Below are positions 27,463 to 39,864 of a stretch of DNA of 64,000 nt, one piece after another. This DNA comes from Rubripirellula sp. (lineage in GTDB: Bacteria > Planctomycetota > Planctomycetia > Pirellulales > Pirellulaceae). A model generated the notes under the pieces. It was not told the origin of the DNA and did not search any database. It worked only from the letters and a program-made list of their open reading frames with translations. Location of the stretch: assembly GCA_029245125.1 (NCBI GenBank), contig JAQWPZ010000017.1, forward strand, positions 62,001 through 126,000, written 5' to 3'. The stretch's first letter is position 1. Each line of letters opens with the position of its first letter. A program made the position numbers and the translations under genes.

Positions 27463-29223
27463 ATGCAACGACAGTGGCGTATCATTCCGCATGACGCCGG
27501 TCGTGTCGAGCAAATGATTCGCTCAACGCGTTTACCGCCCGTTGTTGCGCAATTGCTGGTGAGTCGTGGCGTCTATAACGCCGAGGATGCCAGCCGTTTC
27601 TTGGATACAAAGCTGATCGGATTGCGCGATCCGCAACTCTTGCCTGGAATGGCAGACGCCACAGACCTGATCGTGGAAGCGATCAACAGCAAGACACCGG
27701 TCGTCATCTACGGCGACTACGATTGCGACGGTATGACCGGAACCGCAATCTTGTACAACGGGTTGCGATTGCTGGACGCTGATGTCAGTTACTTCGTACC
27801 GAACCGTTTAGAAGACGGGTATGGATTGAACGAAGACGCGATCCGCAAACTTGCCCAGCGTGGCAAGAAATTAATCGTCACGGTTGATTGCGGAATCACC
27901 AGCATTGCTCACGCAGATCTATGTCGTGAATTGGGCGTCAAGCTGATCATTACCGACCACCACACGCTGGCGGATCGGTTGCCAGCGGCGGAAGCCATTG
28001 TGCATCCCAGGTTGCCTGGTTCGACGTATCCCTTCGGCGAACTATGTGGTGCTGGTGTCGCTTTCAAGTTGGCGTGGTCGATCTGTCAAAAAGTTTGCGG
28101 CGCTAAAAAAGTGAGTGAGTCGCTGCGACGCTACCTCATGCAATCGCTTTCATTAGCCGCGATCGGAACGGTGGCCGATGTCGTCCCCTTGTTGGATGAG
28201 AACCGAATTCTGGTCGAGCATGGGATTCGGATGCTTCGTGGTGAGCCACTGCCAGGATTGGTTGAATTGATGAAGTTGACCAAGCTGGATCAGGTTTCAA
28301 CTCTCAACACCGAAAGTATTGCGTTTAGTTTGGCACCCCGTTTGAACGCTGCTGGGCGTTTGGGTCAGGCCCAGTTGGCGATCGAGTTGCTGACGACACC
28401 TGCCGGCGATCGAACCAATCAACTTGCTGATTACATTCACCAGTTGAACAACACACGCGATACCTTGCAGCGGAGTGTGACGTTGGCTGCCAGTAAGCAG
28501 GCGAAGTCCGAGTTTGATCCGGAGGGAGATCCGGCGCTCGTGCTCGCTGGGGTTGGCTGGCATCAAGGGGTCATCGGAGTCGTGGCAGGACGTTTGGCCG
28601 ATAAGTACGCCAAGCCCGTATTGGTGTTGTCGATGGATGCGACTGGTAAATCGGAGGCGGTTGGTTCGGGCCGAGTTGGTGGCACCGAAGTTGACTTGCA
28701 CGAAGCCTTGACTGAGTGTGAACATCGCTTGGTGCGATTTGGTGGCCACCGTGCCGCCGCAGGTTTGACGATCGATGAGAGAGAGATCGAAGCTTTTCGC
28801 GGAGACTTCTGTGAAGCGGTCGCCCGCCAGTGGACGGACAAAGAAATTGTGCCGGAAATTGTGATTGATGCGGAGGCGACTTTTGGTCAGCTGAATCTTG
28901 AAGTGATCAAGCAGATCGAAATGTTGGCACCGTTCGGGTGTGGGAATCCACGCCCCGTCCTATTCTGCGGTGGAGTCGAATTGGACCAGCCAGCGCGACG
29001 CATGGGTGGTGGAGACCGACATCTGACCGTCAATTTGCGACAGGGTAGCAAGGTGATTCGTGCGGTTGCCTTTAGCGCTGGCGATTGGTGCGATCAGCTG
29101 AATGAGGCGGATGGCCAAATAGAGATTGCTTATCGGCCAGTGATTAATGAATTTCGCGGTTTTCGAAAGGTCGAAATTCATCTTGTCGATTGGCGGCCCG
29201 CGACAAGTTTGGCCGCTGTTTAA
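27463..29223 (+). CDS. recJ: Single-stranded-DNA-specific exonuclease RecJ
   Basis: The start is ATG 27463 (586 aa), with GGAG six bases upstream; an in-frame ATG at 27403 is less well placed. DHH-superfamily motifs are clear: YGDYDCDGMTGTA (motif I), VDCGITS, ITDHHTL (the DHH motif), and the DHHA1-type region GSGRVGGTEVDLHEAL with GGHRAAAG. The C-terminal OB-like domain includes LAPFGCGNPRPV. RecJ degrades single-stranded DNA 5' to 3' in mismatch repair and RecF-pathway recombination, using Mn2+ or Mg2+. Length is normal for the family. Confidence 0.95.
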   Translation: MQRQWRIIPHDAGRVEQMIRSTRLPPVVAQLLVSRGVYNAEDASRFLDTKLIGLRDPQLLPGMADATDLIVEAINSKTPVVIYGDYDCDGMTGTAILYNGLRLLDADVSYFVPNRLEDGYGLNEDAIRKLAQRGKKLIVTVDCGITSIAHADLCRELGVKLIITDHHTLADRLPAAEAIVHPRLPGSTYPFGELCGAGVAFKLAWSICQKVCGAKKVSESLRRYLMQSLSLAAIGTVADVVPLLDENRILVEHGIRMLRGEPLPGLVELMKLTKLDQVSTLNTESIAFSLAPRLNAAGRLGQAQLAIELLTTPAGDRTNQLADYIHQLNNTRDTLQRSVTLAASKQAKSEFDPEGDPALVLAGVGWHQGVIGVVAGRLADKYAKPVLVLSMDATGKSEAVGSGRVGGTEVDLHEALTECEHRLVRFGGHRAAAGLTIDEREIEAFRGDFCEAVARQWTDKEIVPEIVIDAEATFGQLNLEVIKQIEMLAPFGCGNPRPVLFCGGVELDQPARRMGGGDRHLTVNLRQGSKVIRAVAFSAGDWCDQLNEADGQIEIAYRPVINEFRGFRKVEIHLVDWRPATSLAAV

Positions 29224-29383
29224 ACGAGAGATGGCGTTTGTCGTGGTTGATCTCCAGTCAGGCAAAGCAACGTATCGATTGCGTGTCGCGAAAGTTTTCT
29301 CGCGGAAGGCCTGCGGCGACCGCCGGCACGCTCCCTGGAGGCTATGCTGGCTTCTGCAATCCCGCAACCTGAGTGAGTCTGCT

Positions 29384-30724
29384 ATGAGATTAATGCTGAT
29401 CTGTTTAGTGTCGTGTCTTATGTTCTGGTGCCTCGCACCAAGTGCACCCGCGGCGGAACGCCCAAATATTGTCTTGGTCCTGGTTGACGACCTCGGCTAT
29501 GGCGACCTCGCCTGTTTTGGTGCCGAGGATATGCGTACGCCTCACCTTGACGCGTTGATGGCACGCGGCATGCGTTTCGACAACTTCTATGCCAACTGCA
29601 CCGTTTGTTCACCCACCCGCGCATCGCTAATCACCGGTCGTTATCCCGATATCGCCGGTGTGCCCGGAGTGATTCGGCAATGGGATGAAAATTGTTGGGG
29701 CTACCTTGATCCCAACGCCGTGACACTACCGCAGATGTTAAAGACGGCCGGCTATCAAACCGGAATGGTTGGTAAGTGGCACTTGGGGTTCGCGAAACCA
29801 AACGTTCCTAACCATCGTGGCTTTGATTTTTTTCACGGCTTCCTCGGTGACATGATGGATGATTATTACGATCACCTGCGAGGTGGCGAAAATTGGATGC
29901 GGCTGAATGACCAAGTCATTCAGCCGGAAGGTCATGCGACGGATTTGTTTACGCAGTGGTCGATTGATTACATCCGCGATCAGGCGGCTGATGACTCGGA
30001 GCCGTTCTTTTTGTATCTCGCCTACAACGCGCCACATTTTCCGATTCAACCGCCTGAATCCTGGTTCAAGAAAGTACAGGAACGGGAGCCGCAGCTAAAC
30101 GAAAAGCGGGCGAAGAATGTTGCTTTCGTTGAACACCTGGACGACGGGATTGGTCGTCTGATCGCTGCTATTAAAGATGCCGGTATCGAGGACAATACAT
30201 TGGTGATCTTTTCGTCAGACAATGGCGGATCATTGCCGCACGCTCAGAGTAACGGTGAGCTCCGTGGTGGCAAACAGGATCATTGGGAAGGAGGGATTCG
30301 TGTGCCGACGTGTGCTGTTTGGCCCGGCAAGATTCCTGTGAAGCGTTCTGCGGAGATGGGAATGACGATGGACTTCTTGCCCACTTTGTGTGAAATCGCT
30401 GGAGCCGAGGTGACCGCGCCGATCGATGGACATTCACTTGCAGATATTTGGCTGCGTGGTGGTCAGGGTGATCCTGAGCGAATCATGGTATGGGTGAGGA
30501 GAGAGGGAAACAAACGCTATCAAGGGCGGGCTTACTACGCGATTCGAAAAGGTCCTTGGAAATTACAGCAGAGTTCACCATTCGAGCCGATGGTGCTGGT
30601 GAACATGGATGAGGACCCCCTCGAGCAAAATCCCCAGCAACCGACGGGCAAAATTGCGGGCGAACTGCAACGAGAGTTAATGTTGCACCTGCAGCGAGCT
30701 GGTCGCGTTGCCTGGCAGCCCTAA
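29384..30724 (+). CDS. Secreted arylsulfatase-family sulfatase (canonical active site)
   Basis: The start is ATG 29384 (446 aa), opening a signal peptide (LMLICLVSCLMFWCLAPS, cut near AAE). The longer frame from 29147 overlaps recJ and is rejected. Motifs are canonical: the metal-binding pair D35-D36 in VDDLGYGD, the formylglycine site C75-S-P-T-R79, GKWHLG, NAPHFP and SSDNGG. It hydrolyses sulfate esters, probably on an algal or other sulfated polysaccharide, after conversion of Cys75 to formylglycine by an anaerobic or FGE-type modifying enzyme not seen here. The substrate is unknown. It stands between recJ and an esterase. Confidence 0.93.
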   Translation: MRLMLICLVSCLMFWCLAPSAPAAERPNIVLVLVDDLGYGDLACFGAEDMRTPHLDALMARGMRFDNFYANCTVCSPTRASLITGRYPDIAGVPGVIRQWDENCWGYLDPNAVTLPQMLKTAGYQTGMVGKWHLGFAKPNVPNHRGFDFFHGFLGDMMDDYYDHLRGGENWMRLNDQVIQPEGHATDLFTQWSIDYIRDQAADDSEPFFLYLAYNAPHFPIQPPESWFKKVQEREPQLNEKRAKNVAFVEHLDDGIGRLIAAIKDAGIEDNTLVIFSSDNGGSLPHAQSNGELRGGKQDHWEGGIRVPTCAVWPGKIPVKRSAEMGMTMDFLPTLCEIAGAEVTAPIDGHSLADIWLRGGQGDPERIMVWVRREGNKRYQGRAYYAIRKGPWKLQQSSPFEPMVLVNMDEDPLEQNPQQPTGKIAGELQRELMLHLQRAGRVAWQP

Positions 30725-32401: not shown

Positions 32402-32561
32402 TTCTGCAGCATACGGAACCGCTCGGGTTCACTCGGCCGGTTCTGGGACTGACTGGAATCGTGCCATTCCAGTCAGAATCGTCTTGGTGCCGTTACGTTT
32501 TGAGCAGAAGGCTCTAGAATAACGGTGAATTCTGGGCACCTCATTTTAATTGGGATTCAAC

Positions 32562-34121
32562 GTGACTGCTGACGAAGCCTTCGATTCTTATTCGGTCAAG
32601 CACGGCTTGTCGGACCTGTTAGGGAGCGGGGTTGATCCCGTTCAGGCTGGGCTAAAGCTGCGTGAGCTCGCAGAGGGATCCACTGGCCGTGGAAAAGAGT
32701 TAGTTGAATCGATGGCGGCTGAGGCGAATCAGTTGCAGCAATCAGACCCGGCGATCGTTGGTGGTTTGTTGAGTTTGTTGCACATGGTTGTGTTGCAGTC
32801 TGGGCCGGAAGGTATCCGTGAAATGGATCCAGGTCAGTTGCAGCAGATTGAAAGTTCGTTGCCGGCGGAATCTCCCAACCAGCATTTGTTGCAGCATCTG
32901 TATGCGATGATTCAAACCGATCAGTCGCTGCGGTTGCTCGTCGCTTCCTTGCGAAACAGGCCCCCGGAGGACTGGATTGCCGCAGCGCAGGTTCTGAGTC
33001 CCTTGATGCAGCATGATGATTGGTCGGTTGACGCACTGTATCCCGGGATCTTGGATTGCTTGCAGTCGCCGAGCCTCGCGTCGCCCGTGCTCGACGTCGC
33101 GAGTTTCTTGTTGCGAAAGTCACAAGTAGACTGTCATCCAGCTGCAGAACGTTTGCCAATGTTGAACGAACTGTTGGGAGCGGTCAGCGGCCGGTTAAGT
33201 CGGTTCGAGCAAGACCCCCGAGTGCTTGGCGATAGCGTCGAGGTCGTACAGGCAAAATTGGGAGAGGCGGTCGCCTTGGCCGTTTCTCTTTGCGACACAC
33301 TGGCGCTGATCGGCGATGAATCATCCATTGGTAAATTGAATCAAGCGATCGAACTACGGCACCGGCGAGTTCAATGTGAGGCGGCTGGTGCCTTGGCGCG
33401 TTTTGGTGATGAGGTTGGTAAAAAACGCTTGATTGAACTTACGGAGGATCCTGCTGCTCGGTTGAGGGCAATTTCCTACGCAGACGAACTCGATCTAGGC
33501 GAATCGGTGGATGATGCCTACCGCACTGACAACGCGACAGCTGAAGCAGAGATGGCTGTTTGGTTAAGCCAGCCACAGCAAATGGGTGTGCCGCCAACAC
33601 ATGTTGAAGTGATCGAAACGCGGCGGATGTTGTGGCCAAGTTTCCAGGATCCGGTCGATATCGCTCTAGTACGGTTTGAATATAACTTCGGCGATCGCGC
33701 TTTCAGTAACGTAGGGGTCTGTGGGCCTGTGACATTCGCAATGTCAGCGGACGTTGCCGATTTTCCTGTTGATGATATTTTTGAAATCTACGCTGGCTGG
33801 CACGCGGAGCATCCCGATATCTTCTCGATCTCTGCTGATTCGTTTAACGAAGTCCAAGCTCGTATGATGGCAGCTTTCGCGAAACATCTTTCCCAATTGG
33901 GATATGAATCGGTTGATGCCAAGCAATTGGGTTTCTTTTTAGATGAGCATGCAGGGGTATTTCAGGCGGTTCGTGATGACACCGAGTGTGTCGTCGTCAC
34001 CGATGGTTTGGAAACGATCGACAAACCGATTTCCGGACGAATGCGTCCGCCGACCCCAGAGGACATCTTCAATCTGTATAAAGGAAGAAAGATGCTGCGA
34101 ACCTTTAACACCGGTTCGTGA
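32562..34121 (+). CDS. HEAT-like repeat protein of unknown function, first gene of FtsK cassette
   Basis: The start is uncertain. GTG 32562 with GGGA six bases upstream gives 519 residues; TTG 32550 would add four. Residues about 20-330 are almost wholly helical and look like an alpha-solenoid, with one clear HEAT-like unit (HRRVQCEAAGALARFGDEVG). The last 190 residues are a mixed alpha/beta domain (VEVIETRRMLWPSFQDPVDI; FNEVQARMMAAFAKHLSQLGY) that I cannot assign. No signal peptide or membrane segment is seen. It is 27 bp upstream of the small helical protein and lies on the same strand as the FtsK/EssC-like ATPase, so a function in the same system is inferred. Confidence 0.8.
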   Translation: MTADEAFDSYSVKHGLSDLLGSGVDPVQAGLKLRELAEGSTGRGKELVESMAAEANQLQQSDPAIVGGLLSLLHMVVLQSGPEGIREMDPGQLQQIESSLPAESPNQHLLQHLYAMIQTDQSLRLLVASLRNRPPEDWIAAAQVLSPLMQHDDWSVDALYPGILDCLQSPSLASPVLDVASFLLRKSQVDCHPAAERLPMLNELLGAVSGRLSRFEQDPRVLGDSVEVVQAKLGEAVALAVSLCDTLALIGDESSIGKLNQAIELRHRRVQCEAAGALARFGDEVGKKRLIELTEDPAARLRAISYADELDLGESVDDAYRTDNATAEAEMAVWLSQPQQMGVPPTHVEVIETRRMLWPSFQDPVDIALVRFEYNFGDRAFSNVGVCGPVTFAMSADVADFPVDDIFEIYAGWHAEHPDIFSISADSFNEVQARMMAAFAKHLSQLGYESVDAKQLGFFLDEHAGVFQAVRDDTECVVVTDGLETIDKPISGRMRPPTPEDIFNLYKGRKMLRTFNTGS

Positions 34122-34148
34122 TCCACCTCTTGCCCCCCCGAGTGCCGC

Positions 34149-34400
34149 ATGTCTTTCAATCTCGGTCGAATTACAGATTTCGAGGGTAGGTTACAGCGGG
34201 ATTACGTTGAATTTGCACGGCTTTGGGCTGCGGTTCGGGAAGATTGGTTGGATGACCAGTGTCGCAAATTTGAACAAAAACATCTGCATTCTTTGGGTCC
34301 CAGTTTGAGCCGGTTCACGGCGGAGTTACATGAATTTTGCGACTCCGTTCGAAAAGCGGAGGGGGAGCTTCGCGATCATCACCGAGCCGGTGGCGAGTAA
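34149..34400 (+). CDS. Small helical protein, possible WXG100-like partner of the FtsK-like ATPase
   Basis: An 83-residue protein without a signal peptide. It appears as two helices around a short turn: residues 7-31, then W33-L-D35 and a second helix from about 37 to 76 (DQCRKFEQKHLHSLGPSLSR). Size, two-helix hairpin and a Trp at the turn followed by an aromatic in helix 2 (FE) recall WXG100/Esx proteins, but the third position is Asp rather than Gly and no C-terminal YxxxD/E export signal is present. It sits directly between the HEAT-like protein and a large FtsK/EssC-like ATPase, the usual neighbour of Esx proteins. The resemblance is by eye and could be chance for a small helical protein. 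Confidence 0.65.
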   Translation: MSFNLGRITDFEGRLQRDYVEFARLWAAVREDWLDDQCRKFEQKHLHSLGPSLSRFTAELHEFCDSVRKAEGELRDHHRAGGE

Positions 34401-34477
34401 CTAAACTGGGAGGAAGGTTTTTAAGGCCTGTCGAACGTCTTTGCCTTTGGTTCGTTTCTCTGCTGAGTTGAGTTTCC

Positions 34478-37400
34478 ATGAAAGACTCTTCCGTCGGTCC
34501 CGTAGGGCTATTTGATAATCGGCGTCAGCAACGCTTACTGGATGGGTTATCGGACCGCTTTCGATCATGTGTTGAGCGGCAAAAAGATCTGCAGTCGCAG
34601 CACGCGGAAGAGCTGAAGAATGAGGGCGAGCAGCTAACCAGCATGGTCGATGAGACGACGGCGACTTGCCGTCGGCAAAGACGTGAAATGCTCGCGCAGT
34701 GGGATCGGACGGAAGAAGAGCTGATTAGTGGTTACGAGTCGACCGTCATCAAGACCCGGCAAGAGTTGAATCGCCTCGCAGCGAAATTCAGACGGAAAGC
34801 TGGTGAAGAAACGACAACCATCAATCACAAAGTCAAATCGCGTCGCGAAGCGGTTATAGAGCAATACGACAATCGCAAAAATCAACCGGGGCAACAGCAG
34901 CAAAAAGAGCATCGGGAGATCGATGAATCCTTGCAACCAATTCATCAACATTTGGAATGGGGGCGGGCGCTCACCATTCGCCGCTTGGATCGCTTGCCGG
35001 ATGTTGATCTGAATGAGTCACCGAGTAAGTCGATTTCTTCCCACCCGCCTGAGTCGGTCAAAGAATCAATCGAAACGATTGGTCGGCTAACGCGGGAGTG
35101 TGAGAAGACCGTCAATGAGATGCAGGCTGGTGCCGCATCGAAAATTGTTGACTCGTTTTATCTGCCGGGTGGTGTCGCACTTTTTGTTTTTGTCTGGGCG
35201 ATCGTGGCGTTCTTTGTCGCGCCTCAGCCACCGTGGCTGTGGATGGCTGCTGGAATTATTCCTGCTGGCTTTCTTGGTTTTTCAACTTACTTGATTCTGT
35301 TATGGCCGCTTAAACGCATGACGCGACGACTGTACCCAGAGGTCGAGCGAATCTTTCATGCGGCCGAAAAGTGTGCCGCGGCGGGCCGCGTCATTTCAAG
35401 TCAGGAAGCGGCAGAGATGTCCGCCGACTTGATCACACGTCGTGACTCACACATTGATGCGACCAAGCGATGGAAATTAGAGCAGTTGCAAGAGTTGGAG
35501 ACGGTCCTCAAAGTTGAACAGGAAAAGGCTCGCGAGTCGTTACTCGCGACATTAGAAACTGCCGACAATTCGTACTCAAAGAAAGCTGCCGATGTGGATC
35601 AGCAGATGCGAACTCAGGCGGATAAAGTTGCCGGGCAGATCAAGCAGAAAATCGCTGACACGGATCATCGCTCCCAGACGCATCGCGAGGTGAGTGCTGA
35701 GCGACGCCATGAACATCTGCAGCGACTCGCTGTTCGGTTGCAAGATGGGGTTCGTCGTGGCCTGCATCAGATTGAAATCTGTCAGCAGCGAGCCGATATC
35801 CGTTTCCCGGACTGGGCCGATGTTGCTGGAGGAGCGACGCCGACGGGTAACCTTGATTTCCTGCCGTTGGGATGGTTGAAGGTTGATGAGCGACTTCATT
35901 CATTCCTCCGCCCCCCCGCACTTACTAGCGGTCCTGGTGACGGATCTGATCAGGCGGAGGCATCCCAAGATTCAGACGGCATACTGATTGATTTACCTAT
36001 TCCTGAACGGATGCCTGTGGGATTGCACCGACGGTTGCACAGTGGTGTCGTGATTCGGGCACCCCAGGCTCAAATGAATCAGGCGATCGAGTTGGCGCAC
36101 CAGATTTTGTGGCGGGCATTGACTGGGGCGGAACCGTCGCGAACCAAGTTAACCCTGATTGATCCGCTTGGTCGCGGCCAACATTTCACCAGTTTTATGG
36201 CGTTGGCGGACCATGACCCGTCGCTGGTCGGACACCGCGTCTGGACAACGGACAGCAAGATCGATGAGCGGTTAGGCGAATTATCGCATCACGTCGAGGA
36301 TGTGCTGCAGTCTTCCTTGCGAGATCGTTTCGAGCGGATTGAGGATTACAACGAATTGGCAGGTACGATGGCCGAACCGTACCGCGTTGTGGCTGCGGTC
36401 GGTTTCCCCGAAGGCTTGTCGCGGGAAAGCTATCGGCATCTCAAAGCGTTATTACAAAGTGGTCTGCGTTGTGGAATATTTACCGTCCTTGTTTGCGATG
36501 AAGCAAAGCCATGGCCGGCTGATATGCCATTGCCGACCGGTGAAAAAATTGTGCCGCTCTGCTTGGATGAAAAGGGTGAATGGCATCTCGATCTAGAGGG
36601 TCTAAAGGAACTGCCGTTTGTTCCCGCTCCTGCACCACCAAGCGCATTGCGAGGCGAACTTATCGAGCAGCTTGGAAAAGCTGCGATCTCGGCATCCAAG
36701 GTTGAGATTCCGCTCCAAGCGATTCTGTCAGCTGATGATGAGGGTAATGGCAACACGGATGATGGATTGGGAATAGTGGTTGGTTCGCAGGGCGCCAATC
36801 GATCGCTGTGTTTGCAGTTAGGCGAGGGCGTCCGGCAGCATGTGTTAATCGCGGGGAAAACAGGTTCTGGAAAAAGCACGCTGTTGCACTCCATTATTAC
36901 CTCGGGCGCTCATCATTACCGGCCTGATCAGCTGCAGTTTTATCTGCTGGACTTTAAGAAAGGTGTTGAGTTCAAGCCCTATGCGGATTTGGCAATTCCG
37001 CACGCACGGGTCATTGGAATCGAGAGTGAACGCGAATTCGGCCGCAGTGTGTTGCAACGATTGGATGCTGAACTGCAACAGCGCGGAGAGTTGTTCCGTT
37101 CCGCTGGAGTTCAGGAATTAGGGGATTATCGAACGGCAACAGGCAAGACACTGCCACGTATCATGTTGGTGGTCGATGAGTTTCAGGAGTTGTTCGTTAG
37201 AGATGACCGATTGGCGGGTGATTGCACCATGTTGCTCGACCGTCTTGTGCGACAAGGTCGATCGTTCGGGATGCACGTTATTTTGAGTAGTCAGTCATTG
37301 GCGGGTGCTTACTCATTGCCGCGAGCAACACTCGGGCAAATGGCAGTGCGGATAGCGATGCAATGCAGTGAGTCCGATGCAGCCTTGATCTTGTCAGACG

Positions 37401-38389
37401 ACAATACCGCTGCACGACTCATCAGCCGACCTGGCGAAGCGATCTACAATGACGCGGGTGGTTTGGTGGAAGGTAATCAGCCGTTCCAAGTAGCGTGGCT
37501 GTCTTCCGCCGAGCACCGCGAAATGCTCAGTTCTATTGCTGGTCGTGATGAGTCATTTGTTGCAGCGCTTCCGCCTCCTGTTGTGTTCGAAGGTAACCGG
37601 CCCTGCCGGTGGACTTCGACCTTGGCAGCGGCGGCAATGTCCGATGACCAACGATTTGTTGGTCTATTGGGCGAGTCGGTGGAGCTTGGGCCGCCGATTG
37701 CACTTGAGCTATCACGCAACAATGGCCGTAACGTGCTGGTAATTGCTCCGTCGGATTCCCGGTCAGCCCTGATGGCGAGTGCCGTTGCTGGGCTGGCAAA
37801 ATCTGATCCCCGGCTTGAGGTTTTGTACTTCGATGGAAATCGAGTGGATGACAGTCCGTCCACTGCACCGTGGTTCGAAACAGCCGGCATTCAGGTTCAA
37901 ACGATCAAACCACGTGACTGTGAGCAGGAGATGCGGCGATTGGCCGAACTGATCGCAGAACGAGGAGACGAGTCCGAGGGAACAGCCCCCATTTTGCTAG
38001 TCATCGATCCGCTGGAACGGTTCCGTGACCTGCGACAGGACGACTCATTTAATTTTTCATTGGATGCTTCGAGCGGGCAAATCAGTGGTGCTGCTGCATT
38101 TCAGCAAGTGCTTCGTGATGGACCGGCCGCGGGTGTTTTTGTCTTAGTCATTTGTGGTTCCGCAGAAACACTTTCCCGATGGCTTCCACGGGCATCGCAG
38201 CACGACCTTGAGTTGCGAATTTTGGGGCAAATGAATCAATCGGATTCAGCGCTGTTGATCGATTCGCCGATCGCATCCGATTTGTCGGCGGCCACGATGT
38301 TGTTGTACGACGATTCAGACGGCCGGATTAGCAAATTCCGCCAAACAGATCTCCCCGATGCTGGTGCCGTGGCCAAGTGGTTAATGTAA
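34478..38389 (+). CDS. Large FtsK/SpoIIIE (EssC-like) ATPase with coiled coils and membrane hairpin
   Basis: A 1303-residue protein. Residues about 10-215 are long charged coiled coil; 228-283 hold two membrane segments (VALFVFVWAIVAFFVA; WLWMAAGIIPAGFLGF); 290-450 are a second coiled coil. Then come three ATPase-like modules. The first (about 510-770) lacks a P-loop. The second is active-looking, with Walker A G793-KTGSGKS and Walker B VVDEF (D900, E901), and an SSQS motif. The third (about 1075-1290) has a degenerate loop (APSDSRS) and a LLVIDP strand. Such tandem FtsK modules occur in type VII secretion ATPases (EccC/EssC) and DNA pumps. It is followed, with a 13-bp overlap, by a sulfatase gene. 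A secretion or conflict-related role is inferred. Confidence 0.85.
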   Translation: MKDSSVGPVGLFDNRRQQRLLDGLSDRFRSCVERQKDLQSQHAEELKNEGEQLTSMVDETTATCRRQRREMLAQWDRTEEELISGYESTVIKTRQELNRLAAKFRRKAGEETTTINHKVKSRREAVIEQYDNRKNQPGQQQQKEHREIDESLQPIHQHLEWGRALTIRRLDRLPDVDLNESPSKSISSHPPESVKESIETIGRLTRECEKTVNEMQAGAASKIVDSFYLPGGVALFVFVWAIVAFFVAPQPPWLWMAAGIIPAGFLGFSTYLILLWPLKRMTRRLYPEVERIFHAAEKCAAAGRVISSQEAAEMSADLITRRDSHIDATKRWKLEQLQELETVLKVEQEKARESLLATLETADNSYSKKAADVDQQMRTQADKVAGQIKQKIADTDHRSQTHREVSAERRHEHLQRLAVRLQDGVRRGLHQIEICQQRADIRFPDWADVAGGATPTGNLDFLPLGWLKVDERLHSFLRPPALTSGPGDGSDQAEASQDSDGILIDLPIPERMPVGLHRRLHSGVVIRAPQAQMNQAIELAHQILWRALTGAEPSRTKLTLIDPLGRGQHFTSFMALADHDPSLVGHRVWTTDSKIDERLGELSHHVEDVLQSSLRDRFERIEDYNELAGTMAEPYRVVAAVGFPEGLSRESYRHLKALLQSGLRCGIFTVLVCDEAKPWPADMPLPTGEKIVPLCLDEKGEWHLDLEGLKELPFVPAPAPPSALRGELIEQLGKAAISASKVEIPLQAILSADDEGNGNTDDGLGIVVGSQGANRSLCLQLGEGVRQHVLIAGKTGSGKSTLLHSIITSGAHHYRPDQLQFYLLDFKKGVEFKPYADLAIPHARVIGIESEREFGRSVLQRLDAELQQRGELFRSAGVQELGDYRTATGKTLPRIMLVVDEFQELFVRDDRLAGDCTMLLDRLVRQGRSFGMHVILSSQSLAGAYSLPRATLGQMAVRIAMQCSESDAALILSDDNTAARLISRPGEAIYNDAGGLVEGNQPFQVAWLSSAEHREMLSSIAGRDESFVAALPPPVVFEGNRPCRWTSTLAAAAMSDDQRFVGLLGESVELGPPIALELSRNNGRNVLVIAPSDSRSALMASAVAGLAKSDPRLEVLYFDGNRVDDSPSTAPWFETAGIQVQTIKPRDCEQEMRRLAELIAERGDESEGTAPILLVIDPLERFRDLRQDDSFNFSLDASSGQISGAAAFQQVLRDGPAAGVFVLVICGSAETLSRWLPRASQHDLELRILGQMNQSDSALLIDSPIASDLSAATMLLYDDSDGRISKFRQTDLPDAGAVAKWLM

Positions 38390-39864
38390 ATGATGTCAGT
38401 CAGCTGAGTCCACGCTTGGGGGGCGATATCGAGCGACTCGATCATGCTTACCGCTTTCATGGCTTACCAATCTTGGTGATCTCGCTTGTGATTGCCGCCG
38501 GGCTGAGCCTCAATAAAGAGCTCGCCGCAGCGGATCATCCAACCAATATTTTATTGATTACGTGCGACAATCTCGGCTACGGAGATTTGCCTTGTTACAA
38601 CGCAAAGTCAACGGTTGTTGCACCAAACCTTAGTCGTCTGGCTAGCGAAGGGGTGCGGCTCACGAACTTCTACACGGCGTCTCCCACGTGCACTGTTTCC
38701 AGAGCTTGCCTGTTAACCGGACGACTTCCCCAGCGACACGGACTGCAACGACAACTGCCTGGTGTCGAGGGAAATTATGGTGTTGGCTTGAATCAACAAG
38801 AACGACTGTTGCCGCAATTTTTAAAAAGTGGGACTCGTCCCTATGCGACCGGTTGTTTTGGGAAATGGAATATTGGTTTTGCGGCTGGTTCTCGGCCAAC
38901 AGAACGGGGCTTTGATGAGTTCGTGGGACATGCTTCGGGCAATATGGACTACTATCACCATCACTATCGCCAGCAACATGATTTGTATCGTGGGACAGTG
39001 TCTCGGGAGACAGAACATCTCTTTCGCGAGGGAGAGTATTCGACAGATTTGTTTGCTGATGCAGCGATCGATTTCATTCGGCGTCACGGTGGTAATGATC
39101 AACCCTGGTTTTGCTATTTGCCATTCAATGCTCCGCACTTTCCTTCCGCTGGAAATAAGCGGCCGGGCCAACCAACAAACTGGCAAGCACCCGATGATGC
39201 TTTTGAGGCTATCGGCCTTTCGCCCAGTGAGAAGGATCCTAGGAAACGTTACGAAGCGGTTGTGTTCGCTTTGGACCGCGCAATCGGTCGAGTGTTTGAA
39301 TCGTTGGAAATGTCTGGCCAGCTCAACCACACGTTCGTCTTTTTTATGTCTGACAATGGAGCGTTTCGACTCAATCGAAAAGGAATCGATGTGGGGCGTA
39401 ATGATCCGTTGCGGTCTGGGGGTGTGACCTGCTGGGAGGGTGGTTTGCGGGTCGCTGCTATGGCACGTTGGCCACGGCATATACCGGCTGGTTCAGTGAG
39501 GGATGAACCTTTTTGGTCTCCTGATCTTCTGGTGGCATGTCTCAAAATCGCAGGAGTCGATCGGTCAATCGATTTGCCGTCAGACGGTTCTGGTCTGATT
39601 TTGGATGGAAAGAATCCACTCCCTTTGTTGACCCAAGGAAGTAAGTCACCACATCGTTCGTTCTTCTTTGCGTATCGGTCTCACGCAGCAGTCCGCATGG
39701 GGCGTTGGAAAATTGTCCGCGAACGACCTACGGAGGCTTGGCAATTATTCAATCTAAGAACCGATCCGGGTGAGTCGACTGATCTCGCTGGGAAAGAACA
39801 CGATGTTTTGAATCAATTGGTTGCAGAATTTGATTCTTGGAAAGAAAAATTGGCCATGGAATAG
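38377..39864 (+). CDS. Sulfatase-family protein with altered active-site motifs
   Basis: A 495-residue protein from GTG 38377, overlapping the ATPase gene's end by 13 bp, which suggests translational coupling. A hydrophobic segment at about residues 30-52 is a signal anchor or a signal sequence with a long n-region; later GTG/TTG starts near 38470 are possible. The sulfatase fold is clear (NLGYGDLPCYN, NAPHFPS, MSDNGAF), but three key motifs deviate from the canonical sulfatase at 29384: the metal pair DD is D64-N65, the formylglycine site CxPxR is C105-T-V-S-R109, and GKWH is GKWN (N165). Cys and Arg remain. It may be inactive or act on a different ester. Confidence 0.85.
   Translation: MVNVNDVSQLSPRLGGDIERLDHAYRFHGLPILVISLVIAAGLSLNKELAAADHPTNILLITCDNLGYGDLPCYNAKSTVVAPNLSRLASEGVRLTNFYTASPTCTVSRACLLTGRLPQRHGLQRQLPGVEGNYGVGLNQQERLLPQFLKSGTRPYATGCFGKWNIGFAAGSRPTERGFDEFVGHASGNMDYYHHHYRQQHDLYRGTVSRETEHLFREGEYSTDLFADAAIDFIRRHGGNDQPWFCYLPFNAPHFPSAGNKRPGQPTNWQAPDDAFEAIGLSPSEKDPRKRYEAVVFALDRAIGRVFESLEMSGQLNHTFVFFMSDNGAFRLNRKGIDVGRNDPLRSGGVTCWEGGLRVAAMARWPRHIPAGSVRDEPFWSPDLLVACLKIAGVDRSIDLPSDGSGLILDGKNPLPLLTQGSKSPHRSFFFAYRSHAAVRMGRWKIVRERPTEAWQLFNLRTDPGESTDLAGKEHDVLNQLVAEFDSWKEKLAME

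What the first reader, a model, noticed from the sequence alone, without database searches (positions are those of the whole stretch)
32562..38389. HEAT-like protein, 83-aa helical protein and EssC-like ATPase form an undescribed cassette
Three same-strand genes with spacings of 27 and 77 bp encode an alpha-solenoid protein, a small two-helix protein with a Trp at the turn, and a 1303-aa FtsK/SpoIIIE ATPase with three ATPase-like modules. This pairing of a small helical protein and a multi-module FtsK ATPase echoes type VII secretion, but the ATPase topology and the solenoid protein are different, and other type VII membrane components are absent. It could be a planctomycete secretion or DNA-handling system.
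Basis: partly seen in the sequence, partly recalled or inferred. Interest (0 to 1): 0.75.

Follow-up and report, generated by a model that had tools for sequence, protein, structure and literature searches.

The report
Four-gene type VII-like planctomycete export system
The small helical protein and the large ATPase look like half of a four-gene protein-export machine related to type VII secretion, whose other two genes lie elsewhere in this genome, while the neighbouring HEAT-like gene is probably only a neighbour.

Summary
The three ORFs exist as described, but the trio is the wrong unit. The 83-aa protein ('w2') and the 1303-aa FtsK-like ATPase belong to a four-gene set with a canonical WXG100 protein ('w1') and a long helical-hairpin protein ('mid'). 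In many planctomycetes the order is w1-mid-w2-FtsK; in the window's genome w1-mid lies on another contig. In one draw of 294 planctomycete genomes all four occur in 39 of the 41 with this ATPase; in the other 253, w1 and mid occur in none and w2 weakly in one. They are retained even where scattered, in one single-contig genome at four places. The HEAT-like gene shows no association (1 of 41 versus 3 of 253). The ATPase has two predicted membrane segments and three RecA-like modules, only the middle one with a Walker A; its closest solved fold is EccC. A 2012 paper already notes WXG proteins with such an ATPase in planctomycetes; some relatives elsewhere carry a nuclease-like protein in the mid position, which the mostly short planctomycete mid lacks. 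Most likely a membrane-anchored, toxin-free minimal type VII-like export system; that it exports anything is inferred, not shown.

The parts
34149..34400 (+). w2: 83-aa two-helix protein with WLD at the expected turn; divergent WXG100-like
   Evidence: W-x-D invariant in 36 of 36 homologues; profile matches EsxA (6e-4) but also unrelated coiled coils; no Pfam match for the window copy itself.
34478..38389 (+). EccC/EssC-like FtsK ATPase, 1303 aa
35162..35302 (+). two predicted transmembrane segments of the ATPase (residues 229-247 and 257-275) between coiled-coil-like regions
   Evidence: Hydropathy scan: two or more N-terminal segments in 56 of 64 homologues.
36008..36634 (+). ATPase module 1 (residues about 511-719), no Walker A
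   Evidence: AlphaFold2 secondary structure; motif scan.
36764..37354 (+). ATPase module 2 (residues about 763-959), the only one with Walker A (GKTGSGKS, residues 793-800) and Walker B (VVDEF)
37484..38386 (+). ATPase module 3 (residues about 1003-1303), no Walker A
32550..34121 (+). HEAT-like protein: neighbour, probably NOT part of the system

Best explanation
w2 (P0002) and the ATPase (P0003) are two of four parts of a minimal type VII-like export system. The other two, a WXG100 protein w1 (G000:C153:58409-58675, minus) and a long helical-hairpin protein mid (about C153:57914-58402, minus), lie on another contig of the same genome. Proposed working: the ATPase sits in the inner membrane by its two transmembrane segments and forms a ring, as FtsK/EccC relatives do; the helical hairpins w1, w2 and mid pair into a bundle that a degenerate module recognises; ATP hydrolysis in the single active middle module threads the bundle across the inner membrane. 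Without YukC-like parts or a toxin domain on mid, the exported goods would be the hairpins themselves or partners they carry. Shown by computation: homology, single Walker A, predicted membrane segments, four-gene co-occurrence with and without linkage. Inferred: ring, pairing, direction and act of export, cargo.
For: Co-occurrence in one draw of 294 genomes: w1 in 40 of 41 genomes with the ATPase and 0 of 253 without; mid 39 of 41 and 0 of 253; w2 40 of 41 and 1 of 253 (weak, E 1.7e-4); all four in 39. Nine genomes keep all four although they are not in one place; in G105 (one contig) they are at four places; none of these nine supplied rows to the w1 profile. Linked order w1-mid-w2-FtsK; in 28 linked loci no other gene cluster recurs in more than 4. 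w1 is WXG100: PF06013 at E<=0.1 in 22 of 22, window genome's copy 42.1 bits against a cut-off of 27.3; best PDB relatives HP0062 and EsxB. ATPase: EccCa/EssC matches, EccC top by phmmer and Foldseek. One Walker A in 64 of 64 homologues, membrane segments in 56 of 64.
Against: No secretion data. YukD and YukC are not found in the genome, so known type VII scaffold parts are missing; nothing is known to cross the outer membrane. The type VII signal YxxxD/E is in 0 of 22 w1 and 0 of 36 w2. w2 itself has no Pfam match and its PDB profile hits include unrelated coiled coils. mid matches no PDB fold at E<=0.001 and no Pfam family beyond weak scattered hits. The counts are of related genomes and not independent events; two of the 41 ATPase genomes are partial matches. 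PADLOC matches to defence ATPases SspH (1.9e-25) and mad8 (2.8e-20) leave a defence or DNA role open.
Confidence: 0.65

Rival explanations
1. One reading: HEAT-like protein, w2 and ATPase form one functional cassette.
For: Same strand and short spacing; HEAT-like gene next to w2-FtsK in 13 of 30 related loci plus a fragment at a contig edge in L061.
Against: Across 294 genomes orthologues (E<1e-80) are in 1 of 41 with the ATPase and 3 of 253 without, p=0.45; at E<=1e-5, 3 of 41 and 11 of 253, p=0.42. In G274, G121 and G205 it sits among genes unlike the window's, without w2 or the ATPase. The same slot holds other genes in other loci.
Confidence: 0.1
2. A DNA-handling or defence system: the FtsK-like motor moves DNA, with small helical adaptors, as in HerA/Ssp/MADS-type defence.
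For: PADLOC matches of the middle module to SspH and mad8; FtsK motor domains are the next fold family after EccC/EssC; the relatives described with CoCoNuT defence loci (PMC11090510, passages).
Against: EccC/EssC rank first by sequence and fold; partners are WXG100; membrane segments; no recurring nuclease or other gene cluster beside the four; the genome has an ordinary 1054-aa FtsK elsewhere.
Confidence: 0.15
3. A polymorphic-toxin export system for killing competitors, with mid as carrier of a toxin.
For: By position, a Helicobacter plasmid (L153) has w1, a protein with WHH/colicin-DNase matches, an SMI1/KNR4 gene, a 77-aa gene, FtsK; PMC11090510 describes a coiled coil fused to a nuclease beside two WXG100 proteins and such an ATPase. 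L062, L064 and L065 have longer mids.
Against: mid is 160-216 aa in 24 of 27 loci measured (L083 dropped, its start being unclear); no Pfam domain on the two longest; one copy each of w1, mid and w2 and no LXG protein found in the window's genome. The mid profile does not single out the plasmid toxins.
Confidence: 0.1

Closest known systems
WXG100/FtsK 'mobile type VII' systems (Zhang et al. 2012, PMC3482391, Table 1 footnote; passages seen)
   Same: [quoted passage not shown] planctomycetes named.
   Different: The footnote speaks of solo WXG domains and mobile versions. Here there are two WXG-like proteins plus mid, and in nine genomes the genes are dispersed; partners and their co-retention are not mentioned in the passages seen.
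WXG100/EssC-like operons beside CoCoNuT/TerY-P loci (PMC11090510, passages; Anantharaman et al. 2012 known only as cited there)
   Same: Two WXG100-type proteins, one without the motif; a coiled-coil protein; EssC-like ATPase with N-terminal coiled coil.
   Different: There the coiled coil is fused to a nuclease and the ATPase lacks transmembrane segments; here mid is mostly short and the ATPase has them.
Helicobacter pylori HP0062/HP0066 (PMC3397514 and PMC4978471, passages)
   Same: HP0062 is the best PDB relative of w1 (3e-13), has WRD at the hairpin bend, and is in a cluster with an FtsK/SpoIIIE gene called a minimal type VII set.
   Different: The neighbouring genes of that cluster were not compared here; only a related Helicobacter plasmid was.
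T7SSa/T7SSb (EccC, EssC/YukB)
   Same: WXG100 protein and membrane FtsK-type ATPase of the same fold.
   Different: One instead of several Walker A motifs, WxD instead of WxG, no YukD or YukC found, no YxxxD/E signal.

Membership tests
Type VII secretion (T7SSa/b) | WXG100 family protein encoded | tested here: met
   w1: PF06013 in 22 of 22 at E<=0.1, window genome's copy above cut-off. For w2: 11 of 36 at E<=1, window copy none.
Type VII secretion (T7SSa/b) | literal W-x-G at the hairpin | tested here: not met
   W-x-D in 22 of 22 w1 and 36 of 36 w2; W-x-G in 0 and 1. HP0062 has WRD too.
Type VII secretion (T7SSa/b) | EccC/EssC-type FtsK ATPase | tested here: met
   matches are below the curated cut-offs of the EccC/EssC equivalogs, so same fold and kin, not the same equivalog.
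Type VII secretion (T7SSa/b) | ATPase anchored in the membrane | tested here: met
   Predicted only: two or more hydrophobic N-terminal segments in 56 of 64 (in L080 the second lies elsewhere).
Type VII secretion (T7SSa/b) | Walker motifs in more than one module | tested here: not met
   One Walker A in 64 of 64; EssC is said to have them in D1 and D2 (PMC11090510).
Type VII secretion (T7SSa/b) | YukD/EsaB ubiquitin-like protein | tested here: not met
   PF08817 not found in G000 (91% complete); control rings in B. subtilis.
Type VII secretion (T7SSa/b) | YukC/EssB | tested here: not met
   PF10140 not found; control rings in B. subtilis.
Type VII secretion (T7SSa/b) | EccB | tested here: inconclusive
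   PF05108 not found, but the control rang in none of 14 genomes.
Type VII secretion (T7SSa/b) | EsaA, EssA, EccD, EccE | not tested
   No search made for them beyond PF08817.
Type VII secretion (T7SSa/b) | C-terminal YxxxD/E export signal | tested here: not met
   0 of 22 w1, 0 of 36 w2; the wider pattern HxxxD/ExxhxxxH in 11 of 22 w1 (shuffled mean 5.9, max 14) and 4 of 36 w2 (shuffled mean 9.7).
Type VII secretion (T7SSa/b) | ATP-dependent export of WXG100 proteins | not testable with these tools
   Needs experiment.
WXG/FtsK systems of Zhang 2012 | three-module ATPase with only the middle one active, beside a WXG protein | tested here: met
WXG/FtsK systems of Zhang 2012 | mobile | tested here: inconclusive
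   Plasmid relatives exist; in planctomycetes no recurring mobile gene beside it in 28 linked loci, but clade-wise gain and loss.
DNA translocase FtsK/SpoIIIE | orthology with the chromosome translocase | tested here: not met
   The genome's ordinary FtsK is at C244 (221 bits to PF01580 against 81.5 in that search).

The most novel reading that the evidence does not exclude
Planctomycetes keep a toxin-free, four-part type VII-like machine in a diderm envelope, in which one active ATPase module exports helical hairpins (w1, w2, mid) as structural or carrier proteins for an ordinary cell-envelope task; selection holds the four genes together as a set even after their operon has broken up into up to four places.
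Probability: 0.35. Interest if true: 0.75.

Novelty: new variant of a known kind. Interest (0 to 1): 0.52.

Why it matters
Type VII secretion is studied almost only in Gram-positive bacteria. A four-gene version without toxin, YukD or YukC, in diderm bacteria, would show the smallest part list that can work, and would separate the role of the ATPase and hairpins from that of the scaffold. The dispersed genomes are natural controls: co-retention without linkage names the parts without experiment, including two that neighbourhood reading of this window could never have shown. It also gives names to two families (mid and w2) that match no Pfam family reliably.

Tried and rejected
HEAT-like protein as a part: rejected on co-occurrence and on context in G121, G205 and G274. 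The 405-aa gene in its place in six loci: suspected by me from memory to be TelA-like; Pfam gave only a weak PhaP match, dropped. mid as homologue of plasmid toxin N-termini: the mid profile scored the Rhodococcus 314-aa protein at 5.4e-6, but WXG proteins in the same set scored as well (8.9e-6) and the Helicobacter and Caballeronia proteins did not score, so only gene position speaks for it. The w2 profile also picks up w1 proteins, and among the third small genes only the Rhodococcus one scored (6.6e-6). Foldseek for mid: nothing at E<=0.001. Single-sequence P0002 over 294 genomes found only 4; the profile was needed. Fold of P0002 itself was not predicted; the second job went to mid.
Full report
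Observation. The window lies in a 7.06-Mb planctomycete draft genome, 91% complete; its closest named relative locus is from a Rubripirellula MAG (92% identity). The three ORFs are present with spacings of 27 and 77 bp. P0001 has a marginal HEAT match, P0002 no Pfam match, P0003 an FtsK_SpoIIIE domain with EccCa and EssC as best NCBIfam models, below their curated cut-offs; EccC chains lead the PDB sequence search. P0002 matches WXG100 only at E 0.14.

Neighbourhood. The one genome-contig scan gave 31 loci, 30 with this ATPase (L037-L066; L067 is a distant Clostridiales match). A w2 homologue lies directly upstream in 29 of these 30; L063 starts inside the ATPase gene. The HEAT-like gene is next to it in 13 of 30, with a 62-aa fragment at a contig edge in L061. 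Elsewhere that slot holds a 405-aa protein (6 loci), a 465-aa protein (L045) or a thiamine-pyrophosphate enzyme (L053). In L057, L058, L062, L064 and L065, and in more distant planctomycetes, the upstream genes are instead w1 and mid, in the order w1-mid-w2-FtsK. In 28 such loci, no gene cluster other than the four recurs in more than 4 loci, with a rough gene caller.

The missing half. The w1 profile (22 rows) finds one match in the window's genome, G000:C153:58409-58675, E 9.1e-36. Beside it, 3 bp downstream, is mid, 163 aa. The copy passes Pfam's WXG100 cut-off (42.1 against 27.3 bits). So the operon is split: w1-mid on C153, w2-FtsK in the window.

Co-occurrence. Four searches over the same draw of 294 planctomycete genomes (tabulated). 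The ATPase is in 41: 39 strong matches and two partial ones (G271, G279) matching only module 3, which I counted in; without them w1 would be 38 of 39 and 2 of 255. Counts: w1 40 of 41 and 0 of 253; mid 39 of 41 and 0 of 253; w2 40 of 41 and 1 of 253 (G247, E 1.7e-4). All four: 39. Exceptions: G219 lacks w1 and mid, G107 lacks mid and w2 by these searches. Within 8 kb all four lie together in 24 of 41. In 15 genomes with all four they do not; in six of these contig ends may be the cause (G076, G124, G139, G271, G279, G280), in nine not (G000, G024, G087, G105, G137, G152, G194, G216, G251). In G105 and G087 they are at four places; G105 is one contig. Profiles were built partly from sample genomes, but 23 of 40 w1, 21 of 39 mid and 27 of 41 w2 matches are in genomes that gave no row; none of the nine gave a w1 row. 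Only the best candidates per genome were scored, and related genomes are not independent, so the Fisher values (1e-46 to 1e-49) are descriptive. All-or-none patterns recur: in the window's family three other genomes have none of the four; in family f3 the five genomes of genus g7 and G283 have none.

HEAT-like protein. Orthologues (E<1e-80) are in four genomes, all of the window's family: one with the ATPase, three without; p=0.45. At E<=1e-5, 14 genomes: 3 of 41 and 11 of 253, p=0.42. In G274, G121 and G205 none of its neighbours matched window genes at 18-48 kb.

The proteins. w1: WXG100 at E<=0.1 in 22 of 22, TIGR03930 likewise 22 of 22 though member 1 is below the curated cut-off; PDB: HP0062 3e-13, EsxB 2.5e-8, EsxA 1.2e-5. 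w2: WXG100 in 11 of 36 at E<=1, best 5e-4; PDB: EsxA 6e-4, a designed coiled coil 0.0012, HP0062 0.0018, then unrelated coiled coils; w1 and w2 profiles align (hhalign probability 87%, E 4e-6). I read w2 as a divergent WXG100-like protein, not proven. Both have W-x-D (22 of 22, 36 of 36) and no YxxxD/E. mid: AlphaFold2 (five sequences, pLDDT 89) gives two antiparallel helices of about 75 residues; no PDB match at E<=0.001.

The ATPase. Exactly one Walker A in 64 of 64 homologues; hydrophobic N-terminal segments, two or more in 56 and at least one in 60; the four without are short ORFs. AlphaFold2 of residues 430-1303: pLDDT 80.7, pTM 0.64. Foldseek: EccC 4nh0 E 5.7e-28 (whole-chain TM only 0.36, modules being differently placed), EccC/EssC pieces TM 0.42-0.56 by target, then FtsK motors at 7e-12.

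Relatives outside. tblastn gave 191 plasmid records (25 rows seen; four inspected) and 146 phage records (15 rows seen, none inspected). Caballeronia, Helicobacter, Rhodococcus and Deinococcus plasmids each have a w1-like gene near the ATPase gene (E 8e-28 to 6e-11 in a set of 29 proteins). The Helicobacter one has a WHH/colicin-DNase protein in the mid position with an SMI1/KNR4 gene; the Caballeronia one sits with vWA, PP2C and kinase genes; the Rhodococcus one is near TerD genes. The ATPases of these four have no pair of N-terminal hydrophobic segments, and the Deinococcus one does not fit the Walker A pattern used.

Literature. Passages seen: Zhang 2012 names planctomycetes among lineages with solo WXG domains and a three-domain ATPase with only the middle active; PMC11090510 describes two WXG100 proteins, a coiled-coil nuclease and a TM-less EssC-like ATPase; PMC4978471 calls WxG plus FtsK a minimal type VII set; PMC3397514 on HP0062; PMC11217815 on T7SSc-j, no planctomycetes; PMC3935865. 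Searches for planctomycete type VII work listed nothing dedicated to it in this open-access library; subscription journals are not held.

Verdict. A new, membrane-anchored and mostly toxin-free variant of a known but little-studied kind, defined here by four genes that are kept together with or without linkage. Export is the best-supported reading, not a shown one.

Noticed in passing
G000:C153:57914-58675 (L105:7912-8676, minus): w1 and mid of the window's genome, downstream of a 300-aa TPR protein gene on the same strand (L105:8714-9616).
   Followed up: yes
G105:C1 at 234326, 710884, 1936050 and 2663610: ATPase, w1, w2 and mid at four separate places of one single-contig genome.
   Followed up: partly
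L062:1127-2227 and L064:4249-5352: mid with a C-terminal extension of about 200 residues that is alike in the two loci and has no Pfam match.
   Followed up: partly
L047, L048, L049, L051, L052, L060, upstream of w2: A conserved protein of about 405 aa, without a convincing Pfam match, takes the place of the HEAT-like gene.
   Followed up: partly
window 29147-30724 and 38377-39864: Sulfatase-like genes on either side of the locus; the second, if it starts at its GTG, overlaps the ATPase stop by 13 bp.
   Followed up: no
L151:11261-14370 and L152:3522-13505: Plasmid relatives lie beside TerD genes (Rhodococcus) and vWA, CARF, PP2C and kinase genes (Caballeronia), as in published Ter/CoCoNuT associations.
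   Followed up: no
MT836827.1 3411-5624 (hit H26): A faecal phage record aligns with all three module regions (query 436-1187, E 3e-55); not inspected.
   Followed up: no
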